Virus record (IMG/VR): IMGVR_UViG_3300017971_000295
Coordinates: 1-64,000 of that record
Origin: a virus
Strand: one strand, 5' to 3'
DNA: 64,000 nucleotides
The notes below the pieces were generated by a model, which was given only the letters and a program-made list of their open reading frames with translations, was not told the DNA's origin and made no database searches. The position numbers and the translations under genes are program-made. This document shows, piece by piece, positions 5,713 to 15,763 of the stretch. The first letter of the stretch is position 1. Every line of letters starts with the position of its first letter.

Positions 5713-5808
5713 ATGCCCATAGGAATTAAATTAACACAAGAACATCTTGAAGATATTGCAAAAAACAAAAGAAACGGAGGTAGAAACGAGGCATGGAACA
5801 ACCAATAG
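5713..5808 (+). CDS. 31-residue hypothetical protein
   Basis: An AAAGGAGG site sits eight bases before the ATG. The product is small, charged and soluble (MPIGIKLTQEHLEDIAKNKR, ending EAWNNQ). It overlaps the next gene's start by 16 bp. I do not recognise it; the strong ribosome site is the main support. Confidence 0.5.
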   Translation: MPIGIKLTQEHLEDIAKNKRNGGRNEAWNNQ

Positions 5809-6032
5809 AACAAATAGTATATGAAATGAGAAATTCAGGAAATACTCAGGCCGAGATAGCGTCTGAAATTGGTGTTAGTATAGCTGCTGTAAGTTTTTTT
5901 TTATCCGGAAAGATCAAGAGGATTGGTCAAAAAAAACAATTAAAAGTTATTCATAATCCATCCAGGGGGTTGATAAATTGGAACGGACATCAGAAATACA
6001 TAAAAGTTACAGGTGTAAATTTGTTTGAATAA
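5793..6032 (+). CDS. HTH-domain protein
   Basis: A 79-residue protein whose residues 16-40 (NTQAEIASEIGVSIAAVSFF) form a helix-turn-helix like those of sigma-70 region 4 or Cro-type proteins. ACGGAGG precedes the ATG. The C-terminal 30 residues are basic and polar. It sits between primase and several small unknown genes and may be a regulator of the early operon. Confidence 0.65.
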   Translation: MEQPIEQIVYEMRNSGNTQAEIASEIGVSIAAVSFFLSGKIKRIGQKKQLKVIHNPSRGLINWNGHQKYIKVTGVNLFE

Positions 6033-11840: not shown

Positions 11841-12043
11841 TTCTTTTCCTCCTTCAGCCGCTGTACGGCTTTTTCGATGATTTGTGTCATTGTTTCTGGT
11901 TGTTGTTTAATCCAGGCCACCATGTCATATGGCAACCTTGCATAAACCATGTGCCGCTTTTGCTCATCGGGCCATGGTTTTCCGGTTCCTTTGGGGCGGC
12001 CAGCGCCGGGGCGTCGGCCGCCGTGGGTGGTTTTAGGTTTCAT
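11837..12043 (-). CDS. Small DNA-binding-like protein with GRPKG motif
   Basis: A 68-residue basic protein. It begins KPKTTHGGRRPGAGRPKGTG, an AT-hook-like stretch typical of many small phage proteins. A ribbon-helix-helix-like part follows (VYARLPYDMVAWIKQQPETM, then a helix). Together they suggest an Arc/MetJ-type repressor that binds AT-rich DNA, perhaps the promoter at 12195-12223. It overlaps genes on both sides. Confidence 0.65.
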   Translation of the reverse strand: MKPKTTHGGRRPGAGRPKGTGKPWPDEQKRHMVYARLPYDMVAWIKQQPETMTQIIEKAVQRLKEEKK

Positions 12044-12149
12044 AATAATGCCTTTCGATAGACCTAATCTGCTCCTCCTCTTGATTTGGATCCCACCTGT
12101 AAACTTTCTCGTAGGCGTCCAATGTTACGAATCTCCATTTTTCTGTCAT
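12033..12149 (-). CDS. 38-residue hypothetical protein
   Basis: The first gene of the leftward operon: ATG at 12149 with an AAGGAGG site seven bases upstream. The product is acidic and aromatic (MTEKWRFVTLDAYEKVYRWD). It overlaps the start of the GRPKG protein gene by 11 bp. No similarity recognised. Confidence 0.5.
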   Translation of the reverse strand: MTEKWRFVTLDAYEKVYRWDPNQEEEQIRSIERHYYET

Positions 12150-12194
12150 TTTATTGCCTCCTTTGTTTGATTGAGTATTTTATTGTTTAATTAC

Positions 12195-12223
12195 CGTATA
12201 CATCATTATAATTATTGCGTCAA
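12195..12223 (-). promoter_or_regulatory. Promoter of the leftward operon
   Basis: Read on the minus strand: TTGACG (12223-12218), 17-bp spacer, TATACG (12200-12195). The predicted transcript start is about 40 bases before the first ATG of the operon. The surroundings are extremely AT-rich, including runs of A/T at 12221-12320. Confidence 0.65.
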
Positions 12224-12323
12224 GCAAAAAAATCAAAAAGCTTGAATAAAATGAAGAATGAATAAAATAATGTCATTTTTACTATGAAATAAAGTTATTT
12301 TTACTTGCTTTTTGTAAAATAAC

Positions 12324-12598
12324 GTGGTACAGATACCGCATTGCGCCATAGGCAGGTCGATCAAGTAAGGTATTAAGCGAGCTGGTCCGACGGCGCATCT
12401 TTAATAACTCTGGGACTGCCCCCGGTCCTCATTTAATCCTGCGATGCTGGCGCCCAAAATAGCAGGATGGACGGATAAAACGAGCAAATGCTATCTGTTG
12501 GCTGGTCAACGCAGCCATTTACCAAAGATAGCGGCGAATAAACAGAGCTAATACAATGCCAGTGAATCTATGTCTCATTTCAACTTGAGACACTTTTT
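12324..12598 (+). ncRNA. Candidate large structured RNA with its own terminator
   Basis: No gene fits the 548-bp span 12150-12697. Its + strand folds into successive helices. These are GTGGTA (12324-12329)/TACCGC (12334-12339); TGCGCC (12342-12347)/GGCGCA (12392-12397); ATCCTGC (12436-12442)/GCAGGAT (12462-12468); and GCTATCT (12490-12496)/AGATAGC (12526-12532) enclosing GGCTG/CAGCC (12500-12516). The last is a terminator, TGTCTCA (12571-12577)/TGAGACA (12586-12592), followed by CTTTTT. GGCAG (12351) could pair with CTGCC (12416) as a pseudoknot. I find no tRNA, tmRNA, RNase P or group I hallmarks. A GGG-GCAA-CCC tetraloop hairpin follows at 12608-12617. Confidence 0.55.
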
Positions 12599-12629
12599 AT
12601 CAATAACGGGGCAACCCAATACAATAGCG

Positions 12630-12649
12630 GTTGTACGTATTTATACAAC
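12630..12649 (+). promoter_or_regulatory. Inverted repeat upstream of small-terminase-like gene
   Basis: GTTGTA (12630-12635) and TACAAC (12644-12649) form a 6-bp inverted repeat 49 bp before the ATG at 12698. It lies where an operator would be expected, but no clear promoter hexamers can be assigned around it. Confidence 0.35.
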
Positions 12650-12697
12650 AATGAATTCCACATGTTTAAACGATCTCACTCTGACTGATACCTGACT

Positions 12698-13183
12698 ATG
12701 GACGAAACAACAGACATTATCCCCACCGACGACGATACGTTAAATTGCGATATCCTGGTTCCCAATGCATCTAACGAAACTACACCCTATAATTATCGTA
12801 TCTCTCTAGAAGATATACTCCATTGTACTAAGGTCTTAAAACTTACCCCAGCACAAACCGCAGAACGTCTCGGTTGCACTAGATCTAATATTATCCAACG
12901 GTTAAAGGCCGCTGGCTATCATAATACGGATCTTAATAACTTTAAGCGATATAGGGCCGACGTCCATGCGCTCCGTGGCTTGATGATTAGTAAAAATCTT
13001 ACCGAGGACAAAATCAAAAAAATGTCAGCGTATCAATTACAAGGCATGCTCGCTATTAACGAAGAGTTAGAAAAGAAAGCGAGAGACGAGCAACCGCCTG
13101 ATTTTGATTGGTATTTATCATCTCAGGAAGAAGCCGAGATTGATGCAGAGCTTGAAAAAGTCGAATCTGAACTGTCTAATTAA
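12698..13183 (+). CDS. Small-terminase-like HTH protein
   Basis: A 161-residue acidic protein. Residues 50-78 (LTPAQTAERLGCTRSNIIQR) are a helix-turn-helix. Then KRYRADVHALRGLMISKNLT and a helical AYQLQGMLAINEELEKKA part follow, and the end is acidic. This HTH plus helical oligomerisation layout resembles phage small terminase subunits, which recognise the packaging site. The large subunit is 2.6 kb downstream, further away than usual. A transcription regulator is the alternative. It converges on, and overlaps by four bases, the HNH gene. Confidence 0.5.
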   Translation: MDETTDIIPTDDDTLNCDILVPNASNETTPYNYRISLEDILHCTKVLKLTPAQTAERLGCTRSNIIQRLKAAGYHNTDLNNFKRYRADVHALRGLMISKNLTEDKIKKMSAYQLQGMLAINEELEKKARDEQPPDFDWYLSSQEEAEIDAELEKVESELSN

Positions 13184-15529: not shown

Positions 15530-15537
15530 AATAAAGT

Positions 15538-15592
15538 AATCAACAATATTGTTAACAATTTTATTGACAATATTGTTGATTTTTGATACTGA
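15538..15592 (+). promoter_or_regulatory. Inverted repeat overlapping a likely late promoter
   Basis: Perfect 15-bp arms, AATCAACAATATTGT (15538-15552) and ACAATATTGTTGATT (15567-15581), flank a 14-bp centre. A consensus TTGACA (15564-15569) overlaps the right arm, with GATACT (15585-15590) as a poor -10 at 15-bp spacing. The layout suggests an operator-controlled promoter for terminase and the virion operon. An AT-rich terminator for the upstream genes, using the TTTTT at 15580, is the alternative. Confidence 0.55.
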
Positions 15593-15651
15593 GCAATGTG
15601 AGGCTCAAAATATTCCGTTTTTTTAAAACACAAATTACATAGTTAAACGTT

Positions 15652-15757
15652 CGGTTCGCTACCGGCCGTTAGCAATTAACCGACCAGGGTGGGTCACCCC
15701 AGTGAGTTTTCTCCTCTTTTCACTCACTGCCTTTTCTGAGTCGGCTTTTTGCATTTT
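15652..15757 (+). other. Hairpin-rich leader before terminase (possible packaging or control site)
   Basis: Three hairpins lie head to tail in 100 bp. The first is TTCGGTT with AACCGA, containing GCTA/TAGC. The second is GGGTG-GGT-CACCC. The third is CAGTGAG with CTCACTG over a pyrimidine-rich loop. A last T-rich stretch (GGCTTTTTGC) precedes the terminase ATG. The region is GC-richer than its flanks. It could be a cos/pac site, an attenuator, or a structured 5' leader; the sequence does not decide between them. Confidence 0.45.
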
Positions 15758-15763
15758 TAAGAT

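What the first reader, a model, noticed from the sequence alone, without database searches (positions are those of the whole stretch)
12324..12617. Large hairpin-rich intergenic region ending in a terminator: candidate novel RNA gene
A 548-bp gap has no plausible gene, yet about 270 bp of it is GC-richer than the flanks and folds into at least four perfect stems of 6-7 bp, one with an inner 5-bp stem. A possible GGCAG/CTGCC pseudoknot and a true intrinsic terminator are also present. Complexity exceeds that of a leader. It lacks signs of tRNA, tmRNA, RNase P or group I introns. It lies between a leftward operon and a small-terminase-like gene, so roles in packaging, regulation or host interference are open.
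Basis: partly seen in the sequence, partly recalled or inferred. Interest (0 to 1): 0.7.

Follow-up and report, generated by a model that had tools for sequence, protein, structure and literature searches.

The report
Unmatched hairpin-rich phage leader RNA candidate
A roughly 275-base non-coding stretch in a phage genome folds somewhat better than chance and ends in a plausible transcription stop just before the DNA-packaging genes, but no relative of it was found in any collection searched, so it is at best a plausible and unproven leader or small RNA.

Summary
Window 12150-12697 is a 548-bp gap between a leftward gene group and a TerS-like gene. It is AT-rich to about 12320, GC-richer from 12324 to 12550, and has a terminator-like hairpin at 12571-12598. 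Perfect stems of 6 bp or more number 8, against 2.7 in shuffles (p about 0.003). Whole-region folding is only modest (z about -2; 12 of 200 control folds from the same phage are as low). No Rfam, tRNA or tmRNA match exists.

The 'novel RNA gene' reading is not established. Searches of phage records, about 234 related loci, three whole Deltaproteobacteria assemblies and 85 same-class genomes, by sequence and with structure models, found no homologue, so covariation is untestable. One apparent homologue (L177) looked convincing by eye; it proved to be a small protein gene, conserved as protein in L219, and was rejected.

Position favours a late-operon leader: divergent AT-rich control region, folded transcript, terminator, then terminase genes, as in lambda's late leader. 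A trans-acting sRNA, a DNA element, or mostly chance folding remain open. A gap upstream of TerL (15530-15763) has a much stronger fold (z -5.9). Interest is low to moderate.

The parts
12150..12323 (.). AT-rich divergent control region: two 22-nt tandem direct repeats (12262-12283, 12284-12305) and inverted repeat GTTATTTT (12294-12301)/AAAATAAC (12316-12323); likely promoters and operators (inferred)
   Evidence: promoter consensus matches near chance level
12324..12339 (+). 5' hairpin GTGGTA/TACCGC
   Evidence: p 0.95
12342..12397 (+). long interrupted stem-loop closed by TGCGCC/GGCGCA
   Evidence: z -1.9; p 0.77
12408..12547 (+). multi-branch domain closed by CTCTG/CAGAG (p 0.56) holding three hairpins (12413-12428, 12436-12468, 12489-12533)
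   Evidence: (z -2.6)
12571..12598 (+). terminator-like hairpin TGTCTCA-8 nt-TGAGACA followed by CTTTTTA
   Evidence: (z -4.3)
12698..13183 (+). TerS-like gene (161 aa), first gene after the terminator; weak relatives (27-40% identity) in related phages

Best explanation
The stretch is the folded leader of the rightward late (terminase and structural) operon. Transcription starts in the AT-rich divergent control region just left of 12324, makes an RNA of about 275 nt, and mostly stops at the hairpin plus T-run at 12571-12598. Late genes are switched on when polymerase is made to read through, by a phage or host factor or by the leader RNA itself, as with lambda's PR' leader and tR' (protein Q) or HK022 put RNA. 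Shown here: the stems, the terminator-like hairpin, the position and the lack of coding. Inferred: the promoter, the transcript, its ends, and any read-through control.
For: It sits between a leftward gene group and the TerS-like gene, with TerL and portal further downstream on +. The terminator-like hairpin lies about 100 bp before TerS. There are more perfect stems than chance (8 against 2.7). Folding is slightly better on + than on -, and the T-run makes sense only on +. Direct and inverted repeats in the AT-rich part suggest operators. Published precedent for terminators passed by modified polymerase: Q at a late promoter followed by tR' (PMC6606751) and put RNA acting alone (PMC9378689).
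Against: No transcript data. No antiterminator gene was recognised among the window proteins tested, only a possible HTH regulator at 5793-6032. No sigma-70 consensus match at 12290-12323. Relatives with a TerS gene do not carry this element, so it would be private to this phage lineage. Folding energy is only modestly unusual.
Confidence: 0.4

Rival explanations
1. An independent trans-acting small RNA of about 275 nt, with its own promoter and terminator, acting on host or phage targets.
For: Self-contained unit with a terminator; multi-branch core with several stems of pairing probability 0.73-0.97; possible separate weak promoter match for TerS after the terminator (12597-12625).
Against: No homologue anywhere searched; no target known; promoter matches near chance.
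Confidence: 0.22
2. A DNA element rather than an RNA: operator array, packaging start (pac/cos) or replication origin, where inverted repeats are protein-binding sites.
For: AT-rich stretch with 22-nt repeats beside inverted repeats; it lies directly upstream of TerS, where related phages carry repeated operator-like motifs (L121, L171, L126, L159).
Against: The stems differ in sequence from one another instead of repeating one motif; no GC-skew reversal beyond that of gene direction.
Confidence: 0.17
3. Mostly chance folding in non-coding spacer or a decayed gene, with perhaps one real terminator or operator.
For: Energy z about -2, matched by 12 of 200 control folds in the same phage; no conservation found; similar-looking folds occur by chance, as the false L177 match shows.
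Against: Perfect-stem count p about 0.003; GC island inside AT-rich flanks; orderly stems with high pairing probability.
Confidence: 0.21

Closest known systems
Lambdoid PR' late leader with terminator tR' (Q-dependent antitermination)
   Same: Layout: short leader ended by an intrinsic terminator just ahead of late genes
   Different: No Q gene or Q-binding element identified; host group, sequence and length differ; no transcript shown
HK022 put RNA
   Same: Structured phage leader RNA made of stem-loops, as a possible mode of action
   Different: put is about 70 nt with two stem-loops in early operons and acts on RNAP directly (PMC9378689); this is about 275 nt with more stems and no Rfam match
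Large structured RNAs of phages and metagenomes (GOLLD, ROOL type; from general knowledge)
   Same: Non-coding and hairpin-rich
   Different: Much shorter, no Rfam match, no conserved family found

Membership tests
Any of the 4227 Rfam 15 families | Covariance-model match | tested here: not met
   No match at gathering score over the window nor at E up to 5 over 12050-12750
Novel structured RNA class | Homologues with covarying base pairs | tested here: not met
   No homologue by blastn, nhmmer or two structure models in about 234 loci, three whole Deltaproteobacteria assemblies and 85 same-class genomes; covariation therefore untestable
Late leader with intrinsic terminator (PR'-tR' type) | Terminator-like hairpin between leader and late operon | tested here: met
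   12571-12598, 7 pairs plus five T; activity not tested
Late leader with intrinsic terminator (PR'-tR' type) | Promoter upstream | tested here: inconclusive
   Consensus scan near chance; no site at the expected place
Late leader with intrinsic terminator (PR'-tR' type) | Antiterminator factor encoded by the phage | tested here: inconclusive
   None recognised among the window proteins scanned; not every ORF was scanned
Late leader with intrinsic terminator (PR'-tR' type) | Regulated read-through of the terminator | not testable with these tools
   Needs a transcription assay
tRNA or tmRNA | ARAGORN hit | tested here: not met

The most novel reading that the evidence does not exclude
A previously undescribed phage RNA class of about 275 nt encoded at the junction before the terminase genes, acting in cis on late transcription or in trans on host or packaging; the TerS-upstream slot of this phage clade may repeatedly host unrelated structured RNAs (another conserved noncoding stretch lies there in L031/L032).
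Probability: 0.15. Interest if true: 0.55.

Novelty: new member of a known kind. Interest (0 to 1): 0.27.

Why it matters
If real, it would give an entry point to late-gene control in poorly known phages whose TerL relatives lie in Deltaproteobacteria assemblies, and would extend the list of structured phage leader RNAs. As it stands it is a one-sequence candidate, useful mainly as a target for metatranscriptome reads.

Tried and rejected
(1) L177 as homologue. By eye, a CTCTG/CAGAG closing stem, a second hairpin with one inserted pair, a third stem with two compensatory changes, and GGATAAA all matched window 12408-12547; the window-only model R1 hit it at 11.7 bits in a 2-kb search. A pattern scan then found L219, which showed that both L177 and L219 encode a small protein there (..DNPGSPGWK.HQ..RINS.PDHVA..). 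Rejected as coincidence. The notebook idea entries on L177 are superseded by the one. (2) First joint pattern CTCTG..GGATAAA..AAACAGAG: 22 loci; apart from L203 (the same record as L177), none showed the window's fold. (3) TerS-upstream regions of 46 loci: several fold strongly, but with unrelated sequences and often operator-like repeats; no shared RNA with the window. (4) L156 weak translated match: has a stop inside and is not a gene. (5) Rfam int-alpA in this phage: absent; over cut-off only in L019. (6) Replication origin by GC skew: no support.

Full report
What is there. The window is part of an IMG/VR virus record of 64,307 bases. Between the start of a leftward gene group (a 38-aa ORF read by eye starting at 12149, and the 68-aa ORF starting at 12043) and the TerS-like gene at 12698 lies a 548-bp gap. 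Its left third is very AT-rich (GC 0.20-0.27) and holds two 22-nt tandem repeats and an inverted repeat. From 12324 to about 12550 it is GC-richer (0.41-0.53) and folds into ordered stems; a terminator-like hairpin with a T-run lies at 12571-12598.

Is it more than chance? By count of perfect stems of at least 6 bp, yes: 8 against 2.7 in dinucleotide shuffles, p about 0.003. By folding energy, only modestly: z -2.0 on +, -1.6 on -, and 12 of 200 same-length control folds in the same phage are as low.

Relatives. No Rfam family matches, even at E 5. Direct search found nothing in 50,697 phage records. To reach diverged relatives I collected phages by methyltransferase, portal, TerS and TerL queries. 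TerL relatives occur in MAGs of Deltaproteobacteria, including Desulfarculaceae, which suggests the host group. The RNA stretch was searched in about 234 loci with blastn and nhmmer, in 41 whole viral records and three phage genomes, in the three whole Deltaproteobacteria assemblies that hold those TerL relatives and 85 genomes of the class of the first of them, and with covariance models of the core (R1) and of the 5' part (R2). Nothing but the window itself matched.

A false lead, kept on record. L177 has a related TerS and HNH gene, and the stretch just upstream of its TerS appeared to share the closing stem, two hairpins with compensating changes and the joining sequence GGATAAA. A pattern scan for further members found L219, and the comparison showed a conserved small protein in both. 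The match with the window is therefore judged coincidence. It shows how easily such structure-by-eye homology arises.

What it most likely is. The order AT-rich divergent control region, folded transcript, terminator, late operon fits a late-operon leader whose terminator is passed under control, comparable in layout to lambdoid PR'-tR' (PMC6606751) or to cis-acting put RNA (PMC9378689). Only the layout is shown; transcription and control are inferred. A trans-acting sRNA, a DNA element and chance folding are live rivals with confidences 0.22, 0.17 and 0.21.

Verdict. A plausible but unproven structured leader or small RNA, unmatched in the collections searched. Near relatives of the record may be left out of these searches (stated in several outputs), so 'orphan' means not found here, not absent in nature. 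The region upstream of TerL in the same window (15530-15763) has a clearly stronger fold (z -5.9) and would be the better RNA candidate.

Noticed in passing
window 15530-15763: Gap directly upstream of TerL folds far better than chance (z -5.9, 0 of 200 shuffles): an 18-bp near-perfect palindrome at about 15538-15581, then a stem ending GTCGGCTTTTTGC like a terminator.
   Followed up: partly
L031:5327-5835, L032:5639-6200, also L030: A noncoding stretch of about 510-560 nt directly upstream of TerS is conserved (69% identity, many indels); 7 of 95 predicted pairs change on both sides in the two-sequence alignment; no Rfam or phage-record match. Coding was not excluded as carefully as for L177.
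   Followed up: partly
L177:4421-4594 and L219 near 7578: A small protein (..DNPGSPGWK.HQ..RINS.PDHVA..) conserved between two phages, upstream of TerS in L177.
   Followed up: partly
L177:13768-14004: Group I intron (Rfam RF00028, 114 bits).
   Followed up: no
L019:6384-6450: int-alpA RNA (RF02996) directly upstream of TerL; weaker match in the L020 record; not found in the other related phages searched.
   Followed up: partly
L121, L126, L159, L171 upstream of TerS: Repeated operator-like motifs: 8 copies around TACCCTTAA (L121), AAAGTTCAATATTTTGAACC (L126), 4 TGAGACA (L159), 4 ATTCGACA (L171).
   Followed up: partly
window 12262-12305: Two tandem 22-nt repeats, 86% alike, beside an inverted repeat in the AT-rich control region; possible regulator sites.
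   Followed up: no
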